Source: Ophiura sarsii
Taxonomy: Eukaryota > Echinodermata > Ophiuroidea > Amphilepidida > Ophiuridae
Direction: 5' to 3'
Assembly (NCBI GenBank): GCA_035610835.1
Contig: CM069447.1
Location: 17,131,992-17,195,991, forward strand
DNA: 64,000 nt
In this document: piece after piece, positions 11,343 through 62,735 of the stretch
Layout: every line of letters begins with the position of its first letter
How positions within the stretch are numbered: position 1 is the first letter of the stretch
The notes under the pieces: model-generated
Told to the model about the DNA's origin: nothing
Database searches by the model: none
Seen by the model: the letters and a program-made list of their open reading frames with translations, nothing else
Position numbers and translations under genes: made by a program

Positions 11343-12207
11343 TTAAACATTAAATTATATCTAACAACCAAGGCACGGTCGTCTCCAATATCATCTCGAT
11401 GAATTAAGTACCTGGTGCGATCGCAATGATATGTTGCCCAAACCTTCCAAATGCCATATAATGAATGTTTCTTTTTCAAAAAATCTTTCCGTTTATCCAT
11501 CATACATGTTGTCTGGTGAAACACTTAACCCTGTCGACAATTTAAAACTCCTTGGTGTCCATATACAGGCAAATTTAAAATGGGACAAGCAGGTGACTGA
11601 TATGATCAGCAGAGCATCAAGAAGGTTATTTTTGTTGTATGCCCTTAGAGGATTTGGTGCTCCAGTTGAGGACATTCTGGCCGTGTATCAAACCTATGTT
11701 AGACCGCTCCTCGAGTATGCCTGCCCGGTGTGGCATCCATCCATCACCCGTGAGCAAAGTAAGCATATTGAAATGCTGCAAAAAAGATCTTGTCGACTCA
11801 TGCTGGGCAGTAGGTACGCACACTATGACACTGCCCTCCTCGAATTAGGTATTGATAAACTTAGCGACCGCCGGGAACAACTGGTTTTGAAATTCGGCCA
11901 GAAGCTCCTCAATTCAGAGCGCCACCAACATCTGCTCCCTGCAAAACCCGCAATAACGTATTCCCTCAGGAACCAGAAAAAATACCAGGAGCCAAAAACA
12001 AGAACTGGCAGATATTACAACTCAACTATCCCATATGTCATTCGTCTTTTAAATCAATGTTAGCTGTTTATAATATTATATATATATATATATATTTCTG
12101 TATTTTTACTATGTATGATATGTAACTTGTAAGCCCGTGTCATCAGCTGTGCTGTTTTGCTGGCATTTGTATACCATGAATAAATAAATAAATAAATAAA
12201 TAAATAT
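11343..12207 (+). mobile_element. 5'-truncated non-LTR retrotransposon (CR1/L2/Jockey-like), 3' end
   Basis: The open frame from about 11350 (LQYHLDELSTWCDRNDM) through the ORF 11431-12063 encodes the end of a reverse transcriptase: KPSKCHIM, LKLLGVHIQ, LKWDKQV, YQTYVRPLLEYACPVWHPS and LQKRSCRLMLG. It stops at 12061-12063, followed by a short 3' UTR with a TA microsatellite and a terminal (AATA)n tail at 12178-12207, the classic end of a LINE insertion. Coding sequence is intact in this part, so the insertion is fairly young. 5' truncation is usual for target-primed reverse transcription. Confidence 0.85.
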
Positions 12208-20482: not shown

Positions 20483-20943
20483 TCACTTAAACCTAACGGT
20501 GATCGAAATTGTCATCATGTTATCAAAGCCCTTGGCAAATGCAACAATATCTTCTTTTGCTTCGTCATCAGAATTGAATCTGCGGTCGAAAGGGAACCCC
20601 ATGTCGCGCTTGTCGGGGTACTTCTCATTCTTGACGCCGCAGTAGCTCGTACCTTGATCCAAATCATCAGTGTTGACTCTGTCCGCAGCCCAATCCGTTA
20701 GCATGACAAACAGGTCAAAGGTCATTCCATCAGGGGTACCACGGGGTACCAGCATATGAAGCGGCCAACCACAGGTACAGTATCGTTGGTCTCGATCACA
20801 TCCACAAGCGTCGTCGCCAGGTTTATCTGTCGCGTCTGTTGACTTCTTCAACAACTCAAGGATTTCGTCGTATGACTTACCAGGTGGCTTGATGACGGAC
20901 GATAAATTGGAGGAACGTTGGATGTCGTTTTTGCCCTTTGTGA
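20483..20943 (-). CDS. Hemocyanin-like gene, last exon (C-terminus, stop at 20485-20483)
   Basis: 461 nt; with the single carried-over base it forms 154 codons including TGA. It contains [61 protein letters not shown] and ends ISITVRFK. The GWPxHMLxPRG and KYPDKRxMGFPFDR blocks are typical of the family. No consensus poly(A) signal was found close downstream. Confidence 0.95.
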
Positions 20944-23900
20944 CTGAAATTAAAATGTAGATACTTTTTAATCATATTATCGGCATGATTGATAATGGCA
21001 GTAGTTTTTGAAACCGTTTCAATTTAAAATGCAATATGATTAGTTGATAATATAAAAGGAACCTAACTTTAAATTCAGTTATATTTCCCTTAAGGGGGAA
21101 CTCATGGACGTTTTTTATTTGATTTATTTGAATTGTGTGAGTGCTGTAATTATTTAACTATTAATCAAATGCATATAAAGGTATGCATTTTTGGAAAGGT
21201 GAATCCAAATTTGGTATCAATTTTAAACACAAAATGTTGATTATTTGAGAAAATAAAAAATAAATCACTTTTTGAACCAACATTTTTGAACAAAGCTAAC
21301 AAAAATAATTTTTAGTAAAAAATGTCCAATTCGCTTGATTATGATGTTAAGACACTAACAAGTGATTTTTCTAATTTATTTTTCATTTTGTTCGCACTTT
21401 TTAGTCAAAATTTCAAAAAAAATATTAGATTAGGATAAGATATTTAAAAAATTCGTCCCTGAGTTAGTGTCTCTACAATTAAAAAAAATTACATCCTTGA
21501 GTTCCCCCTTAAATAGCTAGACTTACGTGGTTTTACAAACGAATCCATTTCAATGAACATTCGTCGTTGATCGTTGAGTTTCATACGTTTGCCATGGTGG
21601 TCAAGTTTTGGCGCCATAAACACGCGAAATGCTGCTGTAACAGGTGAGTCACTGGTAACTGTGAATTGGTATGTGAATTCGTCGTGATGCACTTGCTGAA
21701 CTTTGACCTACCGCGAGGGAAAACATAGCGTGGTAAAACAAGGTGTCACCAAGGGTTTTCATACTAAATTCTATATTTTTCTGTGAAATCCTTAGAATTA
21801 CTCATGGCTGTATCCTTAAAAGTTACCAATAAAAATATTATTACTATCAGTTTGTGCCAACGTCCTATATAGCATAGCAACTATTAATATGTGACACATC
21901 ACGTCCTAACACTTTCCACACAGCTATGAGTTTTACCATATAAAAACAGAATTTCAAGAATTACGGAACCATTACTAGGCATGTTTGTAATTATTTCGAT
22001 GCATTTCTAATGGTGATTCCAAATATGGTAATGAAATTCAACAAGTTTTACATTTTTGAAACATTTTGGTATGTCGTCTGCAGACGCCTGCCACGTGGAA
22101 AGTGTTTAGGGACACTGAGAGATAAGTATGGGTGTGCACCACCTGTTTTTTAATGGAAATCAGGGTTGTTGCACATACGCCTATGGAACAATTCATTTCC
22201 CTCCAAAATGTAAATATCATCGGCATCAGTGCAACTCAAATAAAGACGTCGTTGAAGCTACGCTGGCATCCTTATCCAAAATCCAGCGTAACATTCAAAA
22301 CCAACCCTGCTCACGACGCTTATTGAAGCCAACTAACGCATAGTCGAACCATGAGAACAACAAATACTTCTACAAAAATTACTCCTAAGCGGGTGTCCGT
22401 TTTCGTATAGTGATCCCGCGTGTTGACATTAAACGTTCAACGCACAAGCTGCACCAGGAAAAAGAAAAACTACTTATGCAATTGACCGTCGTCATGACGA
22501 TATTGTACTTTAGCTTTAACGCCCCCGTGTGCATCACCTCTAAAAACCACCATTTAATGAAAATTCAAAAATCTTGCAAATATGCGTTCCAAAGCCACAA
22601 ATATAAGCGTTAGGCCCCAAAGTTTCGATAATATGCGTTCTTACTAAACAAATCGGATTGGGGGAATTATGTTCTAAAGACCCTACATCTTGAAGAAAAT
22701 CAGTTCACAAGACCCTTGATGGCATACCCCTACCCCAAAATGGTTGAGTCCCACCCCGGGGGTTGAGCTCAGCAGATAGTTTGAATGTCGACTTTTCCCC
22801 ATGATGCACTTCGGATATTTGTTCATCCCAAGCAACCGCTGGCAAGGCATCGTTAAGTGAATTCCGAAAATTACTGTCGACAGCAATCGACGGTGAAACT
22901 GTTATTATGGTATTGTTTATATTCCTATGCCGTATGTAATTTAATTCAAACTAGATCATTGAATATATTATTAATTCAATTTTAAGAGAGGCTAGGGTGC
23001 GTACATTAGAATACTTATGAAGCCTAAAGCAACACTCACATTGACCGCAGTGTTTTCTTTACTTTTTATTTTTGATCTATCGTACAGAAACATGTCCTCA
23101 GCGATATTAATTGTTCTTTCCTGCATGCGAGTAGTCAGGACATCCTCATCTTGGTTTGTCTGTGGTTAAAATTTGATAAAACGTGAAGATTTACACATAT
23201 TAAAAGTCTGATTTACTAAAGTTCCCACCACCAAATAACACATTTTACATTCAAATTCAGACGGGCGCAAAGCGGACTTCTTTTACTCGTCAAGAAGTCG
23301 AGGGTAGGGTTGAATATTAAGAACAGTTGAACTTGAATAACAAGCAACACTAATCATAAATCAAACAGAGTATACATAAGTCCTTTCATCCTCCTAATTT
23401 AAGACTTCGTTTTTAATAAGATAAGTCATAACGATAAACCTAAATTACGAGGAAAATGAAAGAGCCGTTACTATACCTGAATTATCTTCATTCCTTGTAC
23501 AGAAATCCCTTTGAAAAGTAGATCTTTATTGACATATGGCTTGAGTGTTTTTTTGTACATGACAAATATGTTATCAACAAACTTGTGCCAGCGAAAAAAG
23601 ATTGGATCTCGAACTGCTGTTCCAGTGTCTCCCATTACGCCATATGCCTGTTATAAATGAACAGAAGGTGCCGTATGATTCTGTTAAATACTTAGAGAAA
23701 AAAGGGGAAAGTGTGCTTTAGGTCCCAAATACTGGTAAACCAGTATCGTGCAATACTGGAACATAAATATTGTCAGTATCCGTCGATACTGGTACGATTT
23801 TACTGTTTCAGTATCGGTCGTTACTTGTGTTCCAGTAGCGCCCAATAATGGAACATTTTATAGGTGCCAGTATCGGCCGATACCAGAACACTGACTTTGT

Positions 23901-26900
23901 ACCAGTATCTAATGATACCGGGTGTTCCAGTATCGGACAATAGTACAGTCCAAAAAGAAGTTGTCAGTAGTCTTAGTAATCACTGACTTGTCTTGAACAG
24001 ATAGATTGTGGTAACCACTACTGTATAACCTCCTCTGAACGTATAGTGAAGTAACTCTATGTGGGTAGTATTTAGCACGCTTGGAGCCTCCGTCTTTATA
24101 TGCTTGTGTGCATACGTAGATTTTCGAGGAGTTATAGCACTGTAATCAGTTAAGTGACTGTATAAGTGATGTGAAATTTTGTTTGAGGCGTCTGTCTAAT
24201 GGCAGCGAAATTGGTTATAATAAAACTCAGCCGTAAGCTTATTCTGTTCTGGGTATCACTGTCTGATATATAGAATTGATACTAAAACCTCAGCTTATTT
24301 AGTTCAGGGCGTTAATGTAGACATTGGCGAACTTGCGACCTACCTGCTGGTAACGTCCGTCTGGATCAGTAATGATGGAAAGCAAATCATGTCCGTAGTT
24401 GTGTAAACTGCCGTACATATCTGGGTTTGGCGAACTGATGCTGGATTCAATGGCGACGCCCAGGTTTACGATATTCACAGGCACATTTTTTGCCGGATGT
24501 GGCTGTGAATATAAAAATATTGGTTTCCCACATTTTTATTATATGATATTTAAATTTACAACAATTTGTTTGAAACATTAGTATAGAATTGTAATAGGGC
24601 AATGAAATGGATAACACTATTCATTTTCTTTCACATGGGGCCGATTACTACGTTTTCGGGTTTTACATAGCCAGCTACTTTCAAGTTGATTTTTATAGGA
24701 TGTCCCAATGCATTTAGTACTGACTCCCCTTCCCAGTAACGTTTATGATAGCACACTCATGCAGTATAAATCTGCCACACACAAATGACTATTTAAGGTG
24801 AATTTCAAATCTAATCTATCAACAAATGAAAATTTATTTAACATCCTAGAAATATTTTAAATGAAATTATGTTTTTAAGTATATACGAGGGTCATTCAAT
24901 AAGTTCTACCTCCTACCTCCTAACTTTATGATTATAAGAGCCAGTCTTATCAAATATCACACGATTGTAGCTTGGAACCTCAGCTACAAATCCAATGTAA
25001 ATTGATTTGAGTACTGGTTGTACTTTTCCGGACATGCAGTGAGAACCAAACCCCGATTTAATGTGACGGAAACGGATGAAAAACAGCAAAATATCGCCGA
25101 AGTGCTTTTCTATTGGCCTATTGTTAGATGCAAAACATACCTATCGATCAATTATAACCGTTCTAAATGTCAGATATCTCTTTAACAGACTATAAACAAT
25201 AAAGTTGACGGATTGGTTTGGAAAAATATGCCCTCTGAATAGCCAGATCCAGGTCAGGACAACCATTTAGCTTACCCCTCCCCTAGCATGCCTAGAGAAC
25301 CCTGTAAAAGTTATATTTTACTTTCATGATAACTAAGCGATCTTCAGTGTATCGAACTAAATGGAGGGATTCGAAGTCTGTCAAAGCGATAATTTTCTAC
25401 CATTGACTACCTGAGTGACTATTCTGAAGGTTGCACATAAGTAAAACTCATAAAGTGACTATTATGGTAAAGATTTTACATTCGAGGCATCATTGTGGCT
25501 ATAAGTTGTAACAACGAAATTTGACTAATGGCAGTATTCTGGTATGTCAGCCGAGAAATGAAAAATAACCGACAAGACTTTTGTGAGTCAAGAAATGCGC
25601 GCGTAGCTCGCGAAATGTTTCGACTCTACACCTATTTTTGGCACGAAATAAAAGAACGTTCCCGTCACTTTTGAGAAATGCATGGGAGCTCATTTTCTTT
25701 TAAAATGGTTCTAGTTGACAAATTCACTAAGAAACTAAGGTAGGAAGAAAATGGTCACGGAATCCAAAATAATGACTCTTCTAACATGCTCGAGGAAAGG
25801 AGGGAGGTAAAAAGTTACGTACGCTATGTACGTAAGTGAAAATGGCGAAAATTTGGACGACCCCTTAGTAATTGGTGCTTACCGTTGTAAAAGTGCCCTT
25901 GTTGATAGCGTCCAAAATCTTGTGATGGTGGTAGACCAATCTATCGACAAGTACGGGGTTGTCTGGGTCGTCTACGAAGTTGTCTGTAAGGGTCATTCCA
26001 GATGGACGGGCACTGTACTGGTGTGTGCCATAATAATCCGTCAAATGAGAAGCATATCCTTCCTGTGTATACAGATGTTATTAGGAGCGATGTTTCGTCA
26101 AAATGAAAATATATCAAGGACAAACATAGGCATATAACAATATGAATGCTAAAATATCAATTCATTGTTTCTTTTATCCACGTGTTTAAAACGCTGAGTT
26201 ATCATTTCCCTTCCTTTCCTATTCCATTTCTTGGATTTCTTCCTCTTCCTCTCTCACCTTCGGTTTTCACCATGCCTTTCCCCTCTACCGCTTCTTCACC
26301 TTATCTCTTTCCCTCTACTTCTATCCCCTCTCTCCGTTTTTCTTCTTACGCCAATGGGTTGGGGCGTGTACTCACTGGTATCGGATCACTCCAATTATCA
26401 TAGGGACGAACTCTTGGCAATCCCACTGCTAATCTCTCTGCATCATAACGGGCCAGCATCTGCTGATGCATGTAGTAGAATATTTCGCCTTGTCTGTCCT
26501 TCGTTTCGTTGGCGGCACCTTTTCGTTCGACACCTTTCCATGGGTACACCTTAAAACATTGCAAAAAATACACTAGCATTATAATTCTTTTAAACATTGG
26601 ATACATCAGAATCTAAAAATAATCAAGATTGTTAATTGGACCTCAAACATGTCAAATAAACGCGATTTAGGTTTGTTTTGACAGAATATGATGGTGCTGC
26701 TTTGCAAACTCTCAATTCATCAATTCAATATGTTATGGGATAGACTAGCTTGTGCCGAATACACGCGTCACGTCACAATCACGTTAGTCACACTTCACGC
26801 TCGTGTTAGAAAATCAACACTTCAGTCGCGTTAACGTTAATCACACTTCACGCTCGTGTTAAAAAATCAACACTTCAGTCGCGTTAACGTTAATCACACT

Positions 26901-28689
26901 TCACGCTCGTGTTTATAAATCAACACTTCAGTCGCATTAATGTTAATCACACTTCACGTTCTTGTTAGAAAATCCACAATTAGTCTTCAATCACGTTAAT
27001 TAATCACGCTTCACTTTCACGTTGAATAATCATGATTTTAGCGTCAGCATTAGTGGAATCCAGACATATGTTACCATATCTGTGTGCTCAAAGTACCGTC
27101 TTTGACTTGCTTCAACGTAAATGTCAATGTATGTACCATGTGTACCGATGGTCAATTGGTTTCCGCCGTGGCCGAAGCCTTGACCCGTAGGCAAACAGTT
27201 TTACCCCACAGATGCCATATTACATAAAGTTACATATTCATACAACCAAAGATCCCGGGCAAAGATCTGCATGATTCCTGCACAGATCTGTGCCATAGTG
27301 CATTATAAAAATTAACTGTATAATTATGATCTGACTGGTATGAAACTGCCCTGCAAAAGTTTAAATCGCATTTTGATTTATAGTCTCAGTTTATACATAA
27401 CGTAAACGCACATGATTTTTAAACACAAATGTGAAGCGTGATTAACATGAGCGTGATTTACAAACACCAACGTGATTGATAAACATCAGCACAGCGTGCA
27501 GTGTGATTAACACCAACGTGATTAACACCAACGTGATTAACACCAACGTGATAAACAGCAACGCGATTAATACTAACGTGATTAACATTAGCGTGAAGTG
27601 TGAAACGTGACGCGTGTATTCGGCACAAGCCGATAGACTAGTTACCTGCTGTCTCATCTCAATACATGCCATAGGCATGGTAGATCAACCTTTGATATAA
27701 TAGCTTATAAGATTATTATAGTGGTAACTTTAAGCATTTCCTATATATCAACTCTACAAACCAAATTAAGTTTTAAATGCTTGGATTTTAATAATCTGTT
27801 TGCATCCGTTCATTCGGTGTTATATTTTTTAGTGTTAGAGCTCAACAACAAAATGTATTATTAACATTTTGGATATTGCTTGGAATAAAAAAAAATAGCA
27901 TACTATGGTTTGTTTTGGATTTTCTCCATAAATACATGTAATGTAAAATTCAAATGTTTCTCAAATAGTATTTTCAGTGATTATGATTATAAGACTATAC
28001 CTGATGGAAGTGGTAGTGATGAGCATTCAACTCGATATCCTCTCTCCACCAAGAGACTTTAAACTCCGGGTCCAGTTTATTTCCGGTGAGGAACTGTTGT
28101 ATATCCTCGTCTGGCGAAGGCAGGACAGATCCACCCTTCTCTTGGATAATAATAATGACTAGCGCATTATGGATTGCTGTCGCAGTGAAGAAGCTCCTAA
28201 TATTCATTTGCCATAGTGGAGGCACGAGACTATCCGGCATGTCCGGGCGATGTAGCATGGCCACGGTAATCGCATACAGGTATATCCCTTCGTTGAGAAT
28301 CGATTTTAAGAGCTCCGCAGCGAGAAAAAAATTATCATCGTTATCCAAAGAGATCAAGTAGTTGTACGTGGTGGCAGCTTCATCTGCATGAGCTTTCTTG
28401 AAGATGGAAAAATGTTTCCCCTTTGGTAACACACCAATACCTGAAGGGCGAGGAATTCCTGTTTGCTGAGGGCGAGGAACTTCCTGGGGTTTTTTCTTAT
28501 CTTTTTTTTTGCCGGAGACGTACATCTGCATGCCGGGGACAGGGAACTCCAGTTTGCCAGTGGCGACGGGTTTCAGTCGGCCCCCACCATGCTGCCCACC
28601 GGGATGGAAATCGTCGTTAATGTCGTGATAGCGGAAGAGAGAAAGGAATTTTTCTTGTTTGATGGTACCCATAGCAAAATCTCGAAACT
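20483..28689 (-). CDS. Arthropod-type hemocyanin / prophenoloxidase-family gene, 8 coding exons
   Basis: Joined exons (minus strand, 5' to 3'): 28689-28001, 26549-26376, 26062-25883, 24502-24344, 23647-23477, 23159-23040, 21707-21527, 20943-20483. Every junction is GT-AG and the frame stays open, giving about 705 residues from the only in-frame ATG in the first exon (28672-28670), the usual length for this family. Family features seen: N-domain (about 1-200), copper domain with CuA ligands His219, His223 (HHYHFH) and His252 (YYMHQQ), CuB ligands His376, His380 (YGSLHNYGH) and His416 (FRWHKF), then a C-domain with a VFMAPK strand and the CTCGWP and [12 protein letters not shown] motifs. All six copper ligands are present, so dioxygen binding is expected; the protein could be a phenoloxidase or an oxygen carrier. 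No signal peptide follows ATG 28672, as in insect prophenoloxidases, and no clear Arg-Phe activation site was seen. An AG acceptor at 28691-28690 leaves room for an upstream 5' exon. Family assignment is very strong; the enzymatic role is inferred. Confidence 0.93.
21527..21707 (-). CDS. Hemocyanin-like gene, exon 7 (C-domain beta sandwich)
   Basis: 181 nt, acceptor cggtag and donor gtaagt, ending in phase 1, the only non-phase-0 junction of the gene. It encodes [22 protein letters not shown] and [13 protein letters not shown], matching the HxPFTY, RIFMAPK and DQR-MIEMDKFV blocks of hemocyanins and phenoloxidases. Confidence 0.93.
21906..22108 (-). mobile_element. MITE of the TTAACACTTTCCACG family, copy 2 (intron 6)
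   Basis: Reverse-oriented relative of the 31039 copy, with GTCGTCTGCAGACGCCTGCC and ACGTGGAAAGTGTTTA at the right end and aacactttccacacagc at the left. It lies in intron 6 of the hemocyanin-like gene. Confidence 0.7.
23040..23159 (-). CDS. Hemocyanin-like gene, exon 6 (start of C-domain)
   Basis: 40 codons, phase 0, acceptor accacag and donor gtgagt. The sequence [20 protein letters not shown] occupies the place where relatives have a Trp-rich segment such as FWQQSDVDLSRGLDF, and is less conserved. It was placed by splice signals and frame. Confidence 0.85.
23477..23647 (-). CDS. Hemocyanin-like gene, exon 5 (second half of CuB)
   Basis: 57 codons, phase 0, acceptor ataacag and donor gtatag. 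It reads [19 protein letters not shown], one of the most conserved stretches of the superfamily, with the third CuB ligand in RWH followed by KFVDNIF. The remainder ([18 protein letters not shown]) leads into the C-terminal domain. Confidence 0.95.
23725..23945. repeat. Array of CCAGTATCGG-type palindromes in intron 4
   Basis: The motif CCAGTATCGN and its inverse NCGATACTGG recur about ten times with spacers of 10-25 bp, such as gtatcggccgatacc at about 23871. It lies wholly within the 696-bp intron 4 of the hemocyanin-like gene. Confidence 0.7.
24344..24502 (-). CDS. Hemocyanin-like gene, exon 4 (first half of CuB)
   Basis: 53 codons, phase 0, acceptor ttcacag and donor gtaggt. It carries [15 protein letters not shown], with the first two CuB histidines in the spacing H-x3-H, and ends in DPDGRYQQ, equivalent to the conserved DPDHRY segment. 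Confidence 0.95.
24893..24913 (+). mobile_element. Mariner-like terminal sequence in intron 3
   Basis: TACGAGGGTCATTCAATAAG is a typical mariner-type terminus. The matching opposite end and any transposase were not found, so only a remnant is claimed. Confidence 0.45.
25883..26062 (-). CDS. Hemocyanin-like gene, exon 3 (inter-copper region)
   Basis: 60 codons, phase 0, acceptor acacag and donor gtaagc. It opens EGYASHLT, matching the EGYFPHL-type sequence that follows the PIP motif in family members. It then has [27 protein letters not shown] and NKGTFTT before the donor. The three consecutive histidines are not copper ligands by position. Confidence 0.93.
26155..26345 (+). repeat. Pyrimidine-rich tract in intron 2
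   Basis: C/T-rich low-complexity stretch (ttcctcttcctctctcacct type) between exons 2 and 3 of the hemocyanin-like gene. On the coding strand it is purine-rich, so it is not a splice polypyrimidine tract. Confidence 0.6.
26376..26549 (-). CDS. Hemocyanin-like gene, exon 2 (second half of CuA)
   Basis: 58 codons, phase 0 at both ends, with donor gtgagt. It begins VYPWKGVER, directly continuing the HHYHFHQ of the previous exon as in the family consensus. It contains [13 protein letters not shown], which carries the third CuA ligand, and ends with the [11 protein letters not shown] and DPIP stretch that is conserved across hemocyanins and phenoloxidases. Confidence 0.95.
26739..27641. mobile_element. 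Mutator-like MITE in intron 1 of the hemocyanin-like gene
   Basis: Terminal inverted repeats of about 25 bp (CTTGTGCCGAATACACGCGT on the left, its inverse on the right) are flanked by the same 9-10 bp GATAGACTAG (26739-26748, 27632-27641). Duplications of 9-10 bp point to Mutator-like elements. Inside each end lie oppositely oriented tandem repeats: TTAATCACACTTCACGCTCG units at about 26790-27030 and GTGATTAACACCAAC units at about 27430-27600. No transposase is encoded. Confidence 0.8.
28001..28689 (-). CDS. Hemocyanin-like gene, first recognised coding exon (N-domain and first half of CuA)
   Basis: It codes for residues 1-224 if translation starts at ATG 28672. The open frame reaches further upstream but holds no other ATG, and a pyrimidine-poor tttatag acceptor just precedes the exon, so this may be either the start exon or an internal one. 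Visible motifs are KQEKFLSLF near the start, a Lys/Pro-rich linker (about residues 53-80), [18 protein letters not shown], and WWREDIELN followed by the first CuA histidines. The exon ends on a complete Gln codon with donor gtatag (phase 0). Confidence 0.9.
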
Positions 28690-45046: not shown

Positions 45047-45711
45047 GAGCCTGTCTGGACGCGACCGGAGATAGACTGAGAGAACCACATGCTACCACCA
45101 GCACGTGGTAGAGTAGTATTTTTTAGTTCTCTGGGCCGTAAAGGGTAATAAACTCAAATTATTGACCAAACAGCACAACTCTCTCCTACTTGAATGACTA
45201 TAGGTAGAAAAGCATTACCAAATGAAAAAACATCCCACAATTTTGTAGAAAGATGAAGACACTTCCCGATACCAAATGACTATGAGTGTGTCTTTAATGT
45301 TTCAAGCTGTAGTGTAGCAAGTGTGAACTTGTGAACCAGGATAAAATGGCTTTAAACACGTAGGTATTTATTGTTAAGTTCAGTGTTGCAAACACTGCGA
45401 TAAAGTGATGGAATTGGGCTACTTTTGATTGGTGCTCTGTTTGCAAAAAAGATAGGTACCGAGCTGATGATGTATCATATTGTATCACGTATTTCCTTAG
45501 GTTCACTAAACATTTGGGCTACCTTTTTAGTTAGGGCGCAGCCTAGATGGTGCTTACACCATACTTTAAAAAATCTAGGTGGCAAGCCTGACAAAATACT
45601 CCATACTCCATACGCTCACTCGCGGAATTTAGCTTGACAAAATCGGAACAGAATTTGATGTTTGATGTCAAGAACTTTTACACTTTTTCAAGAGATCAAC
45701 ATTTCCGCATC

Positions 45712-46863
45712 ATGGCTATGATTATATGTACTACCAAGCATGCCTTGCTATTTACCATCATTTTGGTGTCAATGCACAACATCAACAGTCAACTTCTAAC
45801 CACAATATTTGCTGTGCGAGATATAACCGCGTTGCTGGAAAATATCACAGACACATCTACTGTGACGTCTATGTTCCTGACACACATTTTGAATCGGAGT
45901 ACCGACACTCAAACGCGCATGGACGGTAGCCTTGTTCAACTCGCAAATACTCAAACTCATATGGCGTCAACTCAATCACGCATGGAGAGTACCCTTGATC
46001 AAATGGTAAATACACAATCACGCATGGAGGTTACCCTTGATCAAATCGCAAATACTCAAACTCAGATGGCAGACACCCAATCTGAAATCGCTAATACTCA
46101 AACTCAGATGGCAAATACCCTCACTCAAGTAGTTCAACTCTTGCAGATGCAAAACCAACAGCTGCATAATGTGACAGACATACTGAGTAACATGAACACA
46201 CATAATAATGCTATTTCTCGGCTACCAAGCGATTGCTATGATCTTGCTTCAAGAGGGCAATATTCATCTGGATATTACACTATACAACCATGGGATGACT
46301 TGGGATACCTTCGTGTGTACTGTGATATGGACACAGATAACGGTGGTTGGACAGTCTTCCAAAAGAGATTCGATGGATCAGTTGACTTTTTCTTAGGATG
46401 GGAATCTTATGAAGACGGATTTGGCAGACCAGATGGGGAATTTTGGATTGGACTGAGACAGATACGGCGACTGATTGAACAAGGCACTTGGATGTTACGC
46501 ATCGATTTAGCCGACTTTCAGGATAATACTGTGTATGCAGAATATGGATCGTTTTCTATTGGGGACGCTGCTTCAAATTATCAGCTGTCCATAGGAGCAT
46601 ACAGTGGTACTGCAGGAGACTCATTGACCCTTCATAACAATTATGCCTTCAGTACCAAGGATAATGACCATGATACCTGGCCTGGTAACTGTGCTGAAAC
46701 CTACAAAGGTGGATGGTGGTACACTCACTGTCACCCATCCAACCTGAATGGCCTGTATCTGGGAGAATCACAGGACAATCCTGCAGGCATGGTGTGGGAG
46801 TACTGGAAAAACTCTTGGGAAGTACTGAAGCGCTCAGAGATGAAAATACGTCGAATCAGATAA
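45712..46863 (+). CDS. Secreted fibrinogen-related (FReD) lectin-like protein with heptad stalk
   Basis: Single-exon ORF. The frame is open from 45634 (409 aa), but ATG 45712 puts a hydrophobic segment (ALLFTIILVSM) directly at the N-terminus as a signal peptide, so I prefer it (383 aa). In 409-aa numbering, residues about 92-187 are a run of seven-residue repeats of the NTQTQMA or STLDQMV type, predicted to be a coiled-coil oligomerisation stalk. Residues 199-409 form a complete fibrinogen C-terminal domain: Cys201/Cys230 and Cys353/Cys366 for the two disulfides, NGGWTVFQKRFDG, DGFGRPDGEFWIGL, STKDNDHD at the calcium site, NCAETYKGGWWY at the ligand pocket, SNLNGLYL and the C-terminal WEVLKRSEMKIRRIR. 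The family includes ficolin- and tachylectin-like pattern-recognition lectins; the ligand here is unknown. Paralogues lie at 58658 and 59312. Confidence 0.9.
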   Translation: MAMIICTTKHALLFTIILVSMHNINSQLLTTIFAVRDITALLENITDTSTVTSMFLTHILNRSTDTQTRMDGSLVQLANTQTHMASTQSRMESTLDQMVNTQSRMEVTLDQIANTQTQMADTQSEIANTQTQMANTLTQVVQLLQMQNQQLHNVTDILSNMNTHNNAISRLPSDCYDLASRGQYSSGYYTIQPWDDLGYLRVYCDMDTDNGGWTVFQKRFDGSVDFFLGWESYEDGFGRPDGEFWIGLRQIRRLIEQGTWMLRIDLADFQDNTVYAEYGSFSIGDAASNYQLSIGAYSGTAGDSLTLHNNYAFSTKDNDHDTWPGNCAETYKGGWWYTHCHPSNLNGLYLGESQDNPAGMVWEYWKNSWEVLKRSEMKIRRIR

Positions 46864-57505: not shown

Positions 57506-58660
57506 CTATTTATGATTGAAATTGATGACTACAGGGGACTTGAATTTGCATCCCTGAAAAAGATGCGCCATTGCATTGCTAGGTGTGATCATGTTTACAG
57601 CTGTTTCCTGCCGTTGAAACTGAACATTGTGAAATTTAAATGCGCGAGTTTGATCAGGTTGATTAGCATGATTCATGTACGCTGCCGAGCTTGTTGTTGC
57701 CACTGATTTAACCGATAGGCCTACATCTTGCGCAATCATCATTGGCTGTGGGTTCGGTACTGCATTGCCGAGCGCATACTGAAGCGCATTTGAAGTTTGG
57801 CGTTTTTGTGTTTGATTTATATCCGTACAGTAGCTCCTAACGCTTGCCTCTGACCTATGGCCACTAACTGCCATTATTACTCTAGTTTCGAACCCGGCAT
57901 CATTTAGTGCGGTTATTGTGGTTGCCCTCACGCTATGATTAGTATAAATACGTGACAGTTCACACTCTTTACTAATGTTTTTTAACATTGACCCCAGTGT
58001 ATTAACACCCACGGGCTGTTTGGTGTACCACTCTTTTTCATCTTGTTTAACATGTTGTTTTGGTCTTTGAAATAGGGCATTTGATTGTGGTGACAGTTTA
58101 CTTAAATACAATTCCATCGCTGCAACCGGGCAAGTGTTGTTTCCGGTTTCATACATTCTTTTTAATGTTGTTTTCCCCCCGATACTAGTTTCCCCACCGT
58201 GATGATTTTTTGTTTTTTCATTGTAACTCATCGTGAAGTACCGCACGTTCATGTCATCTGTCTTGCACACGAATGAGTCTTTCCGAAGTTCCCTCAGCCC
58301 CTCTGATCCTCGTCTACAGAAATGAAATTCCAAATAAAACCACACAAGTCGCTGGAGACTTTTGGGGTTGTCCTTGCTTAGTTTTTCCGAATTGAACATT
58401 TTCTGAAGATCTCCAGTGGCAATGGGTTGATGCGAAGTAGATACATCGAGCCCTTCGTTTTTCAGGCTTTTAATAATGCCATCGTAGACGTGGTTTGCTC
58501 TCGAGAAACGAGGGTCACTGATGATATTGAGGTTTAGGTTAAAAGGTGGGTTAATTAAATGGCGTTGGATCGCTGCCCTTAATCCTCTGTAGCTTGGTAA
58601 CGAATATAATTGGCCATTTTTCTGGCGTACCGCACCGTAAAATTCTCGGAGGTGCATCAT
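57506..58660 (-). CDS. Crypton-type tyrosine recombinase ORF, probably 5'-truncated
   Basis: Uninterrupted 384-aa ORF starting ATG-ATG at 58660. Tyrosine-recombinase catalytic residues appear in order: Arg116/117 in FCRRGSEGLREL, a Lys at 149-151 (NEKTKNH), His242-x-x-Arg245 in NHSVRATTIT, His268 in VSGHRS and the nucleophile Tyr277 in VRSYCTD. The sequence resembles the Crypton/KIAA1958-like (DUF3504) recombinases common in marine invertebrates, including the C-terminal GCKF..VVIN tail. The ORF opens at LREFYGAVRQKNGQLYS, which in relatives is preceded by more N-terminal DNA-binding sequence, and its first codons sit exactly where FReD homology begins on the other strand. It therefore looks truncated by, or joined at, a rearrangement. 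The absence of stops and the intact catalytic set suggest recent arrival or retained function. Family call is strong; activity is unknown. Confidence 0.85.
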   Translation of the reverse strand: MMHLREFYGAVRQKNGQLYSLPSYRGLRAAIQRHLINPPFNLNLNIISDPRFSRANHVYDGIIKSLKNEGLDVSTSHQPIATGDLQKMFNSEKLSKDNPKSLQRLVWFYLEFHFCRRGSEGLRELRKDSFVCKTDDMNVRYFTMSYNEKTKNHHGGETSIGGKTTLKRMYETGNNTCPVAAMELYLSKLSPQSNALFQRPKQHVKQDEKEWYTKQPVGVNTLGSMLKNISKECELSRIYTNHSVRATTITALNDAGFETRVIMAVSGHRSEASVRSYCTDINQTQKRQTSNALQYALGNAVPNPQPMMIAQDVGLSVKSVATTSSAAYMNHANQPDQTRAFKFHNVQFQRQETAVNMITPSNAMAHLFQGCKFKSPVVINFNHK

Positions 58661-59119
58661 GAAGACGGATTTGGCAGCCCTGACGGAGAATATTGGTTGG
58701 GACTACGACAGATACATCGGCTGACTCATCAAGGCTCTTGGATTTTACGCATTGATTTAGCTGACTTTCAGGACAATACCTCATATGCAGAATTTGAATC
58801 GTTTTCTGTTGGAGATGCTGCATCTTTTTATCAGCTGTCCATAGGTGCATACAGTGGTACTGCAGGAGACGCATTGACCGCTCAGAACAACCAATCATTC
58901 AGTACCAAGGATAATGACCATGATACATTTCCTTATAACTGTGCTCAATCCTACAATAGTGGATGGTGGTTCAAACATTGTACCAGATCCAACCTGAATG
59001 GCTTGTATCTGGGAGTATCACAGACTACTTCCCCTGCTTACGGCATGTCGTGGTTTGATTGGAAAGGCTATTGGGAAGTACTGAAGCGCTCGGAGATGAA
59101 AATGCGTCGAATCAGATAA
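58658..59119 (+). pseudogene. 5'-truncated FReD gene copy 2
   Basis: Homology to the intact FReD gene starts abruptly at DGFGSPDGEYWLGL and runs without interruption to the same C-terminus (WEVLKRSEMKMRRIR) and stop. By eye about three quarters of the residues are identical. Signal peptide, stalk and the first half of the domain, with the first two cysteines, are missing and were not found upstream within the window. The remaining part keeps the STKDNDHD calcium site, NCAQSYNSGWWF and SNLNGLYL. It could be a dead fragment or a 3' exon of a new chimera; the open frame runs a further 48 bases upstream into recombinase-side DNA (from 58610), which is probably chance. Confidence 0.85.
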
Positions 59120-61740: not shown

Positions 61741-62222
61741 CTGGGACTATTTTTTTGGCAAAAGGAAGCTATGAAAACCAAGACACAGAAGCTATCTCCC
61801 TCTCAATTGAAATGCCTGATATGACCTGCCTGAGATATTTGGTGATCTCCTGTCATATAACTGCTGACAAAATGTGGTCATATGACTTGGGGGCGCTCAC
61901 TGATGGGGACATTGTGGTGCTGATCAGTTACGATTCCAAAACTGTATATATTACGCGTACGTGCTTAGGCAACACCCTCTTATATGGGCCCAATCAACAA
62001 CAGCAACAACAACAACAATTGAGAAAGAAAGAAAAATTCTGAAATGTGTTTACAACAAAATATGAATATTTGGGTACATTTATTTGAAATGTTTCGAAAA
62101 TTGCAATAATTGCAGGGCCGTCAGATAGGGGGGGGTGCGTTGGGTGGGGATGCACCCCCCTTGAGAATTTGTTTTTTGTTTTTTGGGGGGGGGTAAAAAT
62201 TGCGTTTTGCTTAGTTTCAAAG
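61741..62222. other. Sequence interrupting block C, no gene recognised
   Basis: A 95-aa plus-strand ORF (61755-62042) ends in a short polyglutamine run caused by a CAA/CAG microsatellite. It shows no recognisable domain and no counterpart elsewhere in the window. G-runs occur at about 62130-62195. Confidence 0.4.
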
Positions 62223-62735
62223 TTCAATCCTAACGGATCATCACATCCTCTCAGACGCCCAGCATGGCTTTAGAAAACGCCGTTCATGTGATACTCAACT
62301 GATAGTCACCTTAGACGACCTGGCCAAAGGAATTGACAACAAATCACAAACCGATGTTATCCTTCTAGACTACGAGAAAGCGTTTGACAAGGTTTCTCAC
62401 CGCCACCTCTTCCTGAAAGTCAAGTACTATGGCATACATGGTAACACCTACCAATGGATCAGTGACTTTCTTCACTCCAGATCTGAAGTCGTGCTCGTTG
62501 ACGGACCAAAAAGCTCCCAATCCTCAGTGACATCTGGAGTTCCGCAAGGCAGTGTCTGAGGACCCTTACTTTTCCTGATCTTCATTAATGACTTGCCCCA
62601 ATGTGTTAAATCTTCCACTTCCAGATTATTTGCTGACGACAGTGTCCTATACCGCCAGATCTCTTCCACGGATGACTGCAGTAAACTCCAAGAAGATCTT
62701 GACGCCCTCCAAGTCCTTCCATGTGACAACACATG
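62223..62735 (+). pseudogene. LINE reverse-transcriptase fragment with premature stop
   Basis: Translation gives ILTDHHILSDAQHGFRKRRS, TDVILLDYEKAFDKVSH, YGIHGNTYQWISDFL, SGVPQGSV-stop-GPLLFLIFINDLP and RLFADDSVLYR. These are reverse-transcriptase blocks including the FADD catalytic motif. The stop (TGA at about 62558) replaces the Leu of GSVLGP. The homology ends near 62735. It lies in a stretch (61741-62893) that interrupts duplicated block C and has no counterpart in blocks A and B. Confidence 0.85.

What the first reader, a model, noticed from the sequence alone, without database searches (positions are those of the whole stretch)
20483..28689. Complete arthropod-type hemocyanin/phenoloxidase gene in a genome that does not look arthropod
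Eight exons join in frame into a protein of about 705 residues with all six copper histidines and all three family domains. Members of this superfamily are classically arthropod and onychophoran, with phenoloxidase-like relatives described in tunicates (Ciona). The surroundings (SINE types, Crypton, FReD cluster) suggest a marine, probably deuterostome, invertebrate. If so, this is an informative early-branching member for the origin of arthropod hemocyanin.
Basis: partly seen in the sequence, partly recalled or inferred. Interest (0 to 1): 0.75.

Follow-up and report, generated by a model that had tools for sequence, protein, structure and literature searches.

The report
Echinoderm hemocyanin-type phenoloxidase gene
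This is an intact gene for a copper protein of the arthropod blood-pigment family, very probably in an echinoderm genome that carries many relatives of it, some of which appear to have lost half of their copper site; it is a good candidate for the unassigned gene behind the melanin-forming activity of echinoderm blood.

Summary
Confirmed: eight minus-strand exons (ATG 28672 to stop 20483) join with seven GT-AG introns into 705 residues with Pfam Hemocyanin_N/M/C, six copper histidines, the Phe placeholder and the catalytic-type Glu. A profile that leaves the gene out recovers the same splice sites. Nearest named relatives are crinoid, sea-cucumber and sea-star proteins (43-54% identity for six of them). 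Trees place it in an echinoderm clade apart from a panarthropod clade; grouping its cluster with arthropods is rejected (AU p 4.8e-43). The genome is therefore taken to be an echinoderm; species and class were not identified. The genome has 42 Hemocyanin_M exon matches on nine contigs. Loci read include class-1 genes (10 of 11 rows with six His) and a secreted-type class 2 that has lost two CuA histidines and the Glu but looks like working genes. Most likely function: latent coelomocyte phenoloxidase (inferred). A 2013 survey found no type-3 copper protein in the sea urchin draft genome, and the papers I read assign no gene to echinoderm phenoloxidase. New member of a known kind; the class-2 branch is the more surprising part.

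The parts
28001..28689 (-). exon 1: 28689-28673 before the ATG, ATG 28672, residues 1-224; N domain (81-145), placeholder F91, CuA ligands H219 and H223
26376..26549 (-). exon 2: residues 225-282, CuA ligand H252
25883..26062 (-). exon 3: residues 283-342
24344..24502 (-). exon 4: residues 343-395, catalytic-type E361, CuB ligands H376 and H380
23477..23647 (-). exon 5: residues 396-452, CuB ligand H416; the Hemocyanin_C match begins at 432
23040..23159 (-). exon 6: residues 453-492, C (ig-like) domain
21527..21707 (-). exon 7: residues 493-552 and first base of codon 553, C domain
20483..20943 (-). exon 8: rest of codon 553 to residue 705 and stop; C domain, cysteines C608, C610, C654

Best explanation
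The feature is an intact member of the hemocyanin/prophenoloxidase superfamily in an echinoderm (shown by sequence and trees). It most likely encodes a latent phenoloxidase: a binuclear copper protein without signal peptide, stored in coelomocytes, kept inactive by the N-domain placeholder Phe (F91), and, once released and activated, oxidising phenols for melanisation, encapsulation or cross-linking. Copper binding and general-base catalysis are inferred from conserved residues; storage, activation and melanin formation are inferred from the family and from reported echinoderm phenoloxidase activity. The genome carries a large family of it, including secreted-type derivatives with a broken CuA site.
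For: Three Pfam domains; full-length homology to solved hemocyanins and phenoloxidases. Six His, the placeholder Phe and E361 are kept. E361 aligns with E364 of mosquito PPO8, whose E364Q mutant lost nearly 89% of oxidase and 93% of hydroxylase activity (PMC4700666, passages); mapped through the 4yzw alignment, where the numbering shift of 9 fits all six residues I counted. A start Met without signal peptide, judged by eye, as in P0003, P0005 and P0002. dN/dS 0.35-0.55 against six paralogues by two methods. Echinoderm clade 97/95, window cluster with Antedon 98/94. [quoted passage not shown]
Against: E361, the placeholder and the six His are equally present in the oxygen-carrying hemocyanins of the alignment, so they do not separate enzyme from carrier. 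The closest PDB matches are hemocyanins, ahead of phenoloxidases. No expression, copper or activity data. The position of E395 of Manduca PPO2 is T403 here. R244, which salt-bridges E364 in PPO8, corresponds to Q244 here.
Confidence: 0.68

Rival explanations
1. A respiratory hemocyanin: an extracellular oxygen carrier of the coelomic fluid.
For: Closest solved structures are hemocyanins; chelicerate hemocyanins and this gene share the copper ligands, placeholder, E361 and N377; the gene is multiplied.
Against: No signal peptide seen (also true, from recall, of chelicerate hemocyanins, so weak). No paper listed is about an echinoderm hemocyanin pigment, judged from titles and abstract starts; four of these lists were capped below the number of papers found.
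Confidence: 0.12
2. A copper protein recruited to a non-respiratory, mainly non-enzymatic role (immune effector, metal or protein storage) although its site is intact.
For: Paralogous genes of the same genome have lost ligands and still look like working genes, so enzyme loss is tolerated in this family.
Against: The window gene and 9 of 10 own class-1 paralogue rows keep six His.
Confidence: 0.12
3. Arthropod contamination or recent horizontal transfer from an arthropod.
For: Only the family name points that way.
Against: The window lies in a 79-Mb contig with four further copies within about 0.3 Mb and others on other chromosome-size contigs; its cluster grouped with arthropods to the exclusion of other echinoderms is rejected, AU p 4.8e-43.
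Confidence: 0.01
4. A decaying pseudogene.
For: In the neighbouring paralogue A the exon-5 region with the sixth copper ligand was not found.
Against: Open frame through eight exons, intact splice sites, dN/dS well under 1.
Confidence: 0.03

Closest known systems
Antedon mediterranea 'hemocyanin AA6 chain-like' (P0002) and homologues in Holothuria leucospilota (P0003, P0007), Asterias amurensis (P0004), Acanthaster planci (P0005), Patiria miniata (P0006)
   Same: N, M and C domains, six His and E361 (the Patiria record has a gap over part of this), 43-54% identity over 89-90% of the query
   Different: The window gene's N-terminus is 32-43 residues longer than in five own-genome paralogues, by a K/P-rich stretch; the database names are automatic
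Chelicerate hemocyanin (AA6 chain 3ixv; Limulus subunit II 1oxy)
   Same: Full-length homology, E 8.8e-129 and 3.4e-114; same copper ligands; F91 aligns with chain position 49 of 1oxy
   Different: In a different, supported clade; oxygen carriage not shown here
Arthropod prophenoloxidase (Manduca 3hhs, Anopheles PPO8 4yzw)
   Same: Copper ligands, catalytic Glu, placeholder
   Different: Not within the arthropod clade; activation cleavage site not identified
Tunicate, hemichordate, sponge and fungal hemocyanin-like proteins
   Same: Reported as similar to the arthropod proteins and probably phenoloxidases (PMC6034248, passage); a hemichordate hemocyanin is tabled in PMC3658974 (passages)
   Different: Only two chytrid sequences were in my trees; the others were not compared
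Insect hexamerins / crustacean pseudo-hemocyanins (for the class-2 paralogues)
   Same: Hemocyanin N/M/C domains with lost copper ligands
   Different: Class 2 matches hemocyanins (2e-56) better than insect storage proteins (9.5e-31 at best; which rows are storage proteins is partly from recall) and keeps the CuB His; no hexamerin was in the trees

Membership tests
Hemocyanin/prophenoloxidase superfamily (three-domain) | Hemocyanin_N, _M and _C domains in order | tested here: met
   all over the curated cut-offs
Hemocyanin/prophenoloxidase superfamily (three-domain) | Two copper sites with three His each | tested here: met
   H219, H223, H252; H376, H380, H416
Hemocyanin/prophenoloxidase superfamily (three-domain) | N-domain placeholder Phe | tested here: met
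   F91
Hemocyanin/prophenoloxidase superfamily (three-domain) | Assembly into dimers or hexamers | not testable with these tools
   needs protein
Arthropod hemocyanin (oxygen carrier) | Phylogenetic place among panarthropod hemocyanins | tested here: not met
Arthropod hemocyanin (oxygen carrier) | Reversible O2 binding in blood | not testable with these tools
   needs protein
Prophenoloxidase (by function) | General-base Glu at the PPO8 E364 position | tested here: met
   E361; also present in hemocyanins
Prophenoloxidase (by function) | No signal peptide | tested here: inconclusive
   Start Met context shared with nine own paralogues and some orthologues, judged by eye; an upstream coding exon is not excluded without RNA
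Prophenoloxidase (by function) | Activating cleavage site | not tested
   -
Prophenoloxidase (by function) | Phenol oxidation after activation | not testable with these tools
   needs protein
Hexamerin (for class-2 paralogues) | Loss of copper ligands | tested here: met
   H223->S and H252->Y, with E361->F/I/G, in 4 of 4 loci so read; CuB His kept, so the loss is partial
Hexamerin (for class-2 paralogues) | Descent from arthropod hemocyanins | tested here: inconclusive
   class 2 held with arthropods p 0.025 and on the echinoderm side 97/95, but no hexamerin row was included and class 2 has a long branch (warning)

The most novel reading that the evidence does not exclude
In this echinoderm the superfamily has repeated the arthropod story independently: from copper enzymes it has produced secreted-type hemocyanin-fold proteins without a working CuA site (class 2: F, G, N and the C1 copy; a more degraded class 3 on C10), kept by selection. 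That would be a deuterostome parallel of insect hexamerins and crustacean pseudo-hemocyanins, next to an expanded set of phenoloxidase-type genes that includes the window gene.
Probability: 0.5. Interest if true: 0.65.

Novelty: new member of a known kind. Interest (0 to 1): 0.5.

Why it matters
A 2013 survey found no type-3 copper protein in the sea urchin draft genome, and echinoderm phenoloxidase activity has no assigned gene in the papers I read. A multi-gene family with intact sites, shared by crinoids, sea stars, a sea cucumber and this genome, makes the question 'which gene melanises in echinoderms' directly testable, and, if descent was vertical, puts the three-domain hemocyanin before the split of echinoderms and arthropods. 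The class-2 branch would be a second, independent case of enzyme-to-non-enzyme evolution in this fold.

Tried and rejected
Species identity: my first guess, the published Amphiura filiformis assembly, fits the total size (1.57 Gb) but not the layout: 20 chromosome-size scaffolds, 93.5% of the length, N50 68.8 Mb (PMC11310086, passages), whereas here 19 contigs of 63.1-159.6 Mb sum to 1,529.8 of 1,573.7 Mb (sum done by hand). A paper search for an echinoderm genome note listed four papers, three on sea stars and one on a sea anemone. A brittle star remains my guess by elimination only (identities of 43-54% to the crinoid, sea-star and sea-cucumber proteins of its clade; chromosome number); a crinoid is not excluded, because the nearest relative outside this genome is a crinoid protein. 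A 16-kb contig (C747) tried as mitochondrion showed no long mitochondrial reading frame in the 8 kb read.

A search of the protein collection with a class-2 protein gave 0 hits among the 7,998 candidates scored; the word filter may be to blame, since the same protein matches PDB hemocyanins at 2e-56. That the K/P-rich stretch of exon 1 is an unspliced intron was considered by eye only: the one candidate I looked at would shift the frame. My early idea that the Glu just before GVMGD was the catalytic base was dropped after reading PMC4700666 passages.

Trees, results that cut against or limit the reading: ctenophores lie outside the echinoderm + panarthropod pair with weak support only (83/61; unresolved). 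A single origin of all own class-1 rows was not rejected in the first set (p 0.206) and was rejected with one more C4 gene and other rows dropped (p 0.023), both groups named after a tree was seen; own rows plus sea-star and sea-cucumber rows without Antedon: p 0.116. Class 2 with the class-1 echinoderm rows but without Anneissia: p 0.176. Class 2 with the crinoid EGF-type protein (94/79) was unresolved, and one search warned that long branches meet there. Rows dropped: one search left out the bacterial, fungal and other-eukaryote rows, Bolinopsis, P0029 and own copies A and K; one search left out eleven rows of the first set (own A, C, I, K; two bacterial, two chelicerate, two crustacean and one other-eukaryote row), added own P and ten proteins, and used only the first 750 residues of P0121.
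Full report
OBSERVATION. Pfam finds Hemocyanin_N (2e-11), Hemocyanin_M (1.2e-54), Hemocyanin_C (5.1e-61) and, weakly, Tyrosinase (2.9e-6). The best solved structure is hemocyanin AA6 (3ixv, 8.8e-129), then Limulus hemocyanin (1oxy) and Manduca phenoloxidase (3hhs) (organism names of 1oxy and 3hhs from PMC3658974, passage). I wrote a spliced protein-to-DNA aligner; with a profile of seven other sequences and without the window gene it returned the same 14 splice boundaries. Of those seven, six are from named echinoderms and one (P0001) is unnamed but groups with Holothuria. Chance is not an issue.

ACTIVE SITE. In an alignment of 45 rows, 40 have all six copper His; the exceptions are own-genome copy A, the three class-2 rows, and the Patiria record, which has a gap there. 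The window gene has H219, H223, H252, H376, H380 and H416, the placeholder F91, N377, and E361. E361 aligns with E364 of Anopheles PPO8, reported as the general base, with nearly 89% (oxidase) and 93% (hydroxylase) loss in the Gln mutant, and F91 with its placeholder F99 (PMC4700666, passages). I mapped them through the 4yzw alignment; one numbering shift of 9 fits F99, E364, V406, R244, F248 and F415. R244 corresponds to Q244 and V406 to T403 in the window protein. Ligands, placeholder and E361 also occur in oxygen carriers, so they support a working type-3 copper site, not enzyme against carrier.

RELATIVES AND TREE. The nearest proteins among 331 found (120 listed) are from Antedon mediterranea, Holothuria leucospilota (two), Asterias amurensis, Acanthaster planci and Patiria miniata (43-54% identity), plus one unnamed (52%); Anneissia japonica follows at 36%, below chelicerate hemocyanins. 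In the widest tree (45 rows, 623 columns, rooted by me on bacteria and chytrids), the echinoderm rows including this genome form one clade (97/95) and panarthropods another (100/99, with four unnamed rows inside). Ctenophore Bolinopsis with two rows of unnamed organisms lies outside these two, but weakly (83/61). Holding the window cluster together with arthropods, other echinoderms outside, is rejected (p 4.8e-43). The gene is therefore neither arthropod nor contaminant. Tunicates, hemichordates and hexamerins were not sampled.

THE GENOME. The window lies at G000:C7:17131992-17195991 of a 1.574-Gb assembly in 748 contigs; a Hemocyanin_M search gave 42 exon matches over nine contigs. I modelled 13 regions and three more loci; the rest of the matches were not modelled, and 42 counts exon matches, not genes. 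I distinguish three classes. Class 1, with no evident signal peptide: the window gene, A-E on C7, H-K on C9, and the more divergent M on C14 (51% over the aligned part) and P on C4 (52%). Paralogue E returns eight exons in the window gene's pattern; in others the aligner added small extra splits that I take for artefacts. Class 2, with signal-peptide-like starts judged by eye: F and G on C7, N on C13, a copy on C1; a C5 locus looks alike. Class 3: one locus read on C10.

Of 11 own class-1 rows, counting the window, 10 keep six His (A does not) and 10 keep Glu at 361 (I has Asp in a poor stretch of its model); 9 have Phe at the placeholder (E has Tyr, M has a gap). Incomplete models: A, where exon 5 was not found; H, I and K, which stop after exon 5 about 2.5-2.8 kb before the end of the fetched stretch, so that the missing exons may lie beyond it; M, without N-terminus and C domain; P, cut by the fetched stretch. 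The modelled parts of H and K are identical proteins, possibly a recent duplicate or an assembly duplicate.

CLASS 2 AND 3. In F, G, N and the C1 copy, H223 reads S, H252 reads Y and E361 reads F, I or G, while the three CuB His remain. In the class-3 locus only H219, H380 and H416 remain, and its first exon frame holds a stop. The models of F, G and N have no stops in 575-580 residues. N against G gives dN 0.376, dS 2.04 (near saturation; one of two methods failed), N against the C1 copy dN 0.086, dS 0.262, and the recent pair F and G dN 0.039, dS 0.062, a ratio of about 0.6 (NG86). Class-2 genes are thus probably working genes. A class-2 protein matches the three Pfam domains and hemocyanin AA6 at 2e-56. 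Crinoids have a second type, P0016 with EGF repeats and P0122 with a signal-peptide-like start, both with six His; whether class 2 is related to that type is open.

SELECTION. Against paralogues B, C, D, E, H and J the window gene has dN 0.158-0.201 and dS 0.329-0.520 by two methods, a ratio of about 0.35-0.55.

FUNCTION. I commit to a latent phenoloxidase of coelomocytes (0.68 including identity). Shown: intact gene, domains, ligands, selection, place among echinoderm sequences. Inferred: copper loading, storage in cells, activation, melanin formation. [quoted passage not shown] limited proteolysis in vitro raises phenoloxidase activity in echinoderms (PMC9395347, passage); phenoloxidase activity is listed for sea-cucumber coelomic fluid (PMC4519954, passage).

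NOVELTY. The draft sea urchin genome was reported to have no type-3 copper protein, and a hemichordate hemocyanin is tabled (PMC3658974, passages). [quoted passage not shown] In the listings, read by title and abstract start and partly capped, I saw no paper on hemocyanin-type genes of echinoderms; hemocyanin, haemocyanin, phenoloxidase, tyrosinase and hexamerin do not occur in the main text of the Amphiura filiformis genome paper (PMC11310086). The library is open-access only, so this is weak evidence of absence. Database entries for other echinoderms exist, hence 'new member of a known kind'.

Mended: six, not five, echinoderm species; ctenophore placement is weakly supported; hexamerin descent set to inconclusive; incomplete models described one by one.

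Noticed in passing
window 45592-46860 (+) and 58610-59116 (+): Two fibrinogen-C (FReD) reading frames, stop to stop; the first is 423 residues with a repeated N-terminal part; E 7.8e-69 and 8.9e-44.
   Followed up: partly
window 57509-58702 (-): Crypton-like tyrosine recombinase frame: DUF3504 5.6e-15 and Phage_integrase 1.5e-7; the open frame overlaps that of the second FReD piece on the other strand by 93 bases.
   Followed up: partly
window 62215-62556 (+); 11365-12060 (+): Reverse transcriptase fragment (RVT_1 5e-11); the second frame looks like the end of a retrotransposon polymerase by eye but has no Pfam match.
   Followed up: no
G000:C9:18906001-18916000 and 19171001-19181000 (L021, L025): Two class-1 genes whose modelled parts (372 residues) are identical, about 265 kb apart: recent duplication or assembly duplicate.
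   Followed up: no
window exon 1, about residues 44-77: K/P-rich stretch; residues before the conserved IGVL motif are 78 in the window gene against 35-46 in five own-genome paralogues.
   Followed up: partly
L029 (G000:C10:18018001-18024000): Third, more degraded hemocyanin-like class with a signal-peptide-like start; its first exon frame is interrupted by a stop.
   Followed up: partly
P0016 (Anneissia japonica): Crinoid hemocyanin-like protein with EGF repeats at the N-terminus and Q/G at positions 361/377.
   Followed up: partly
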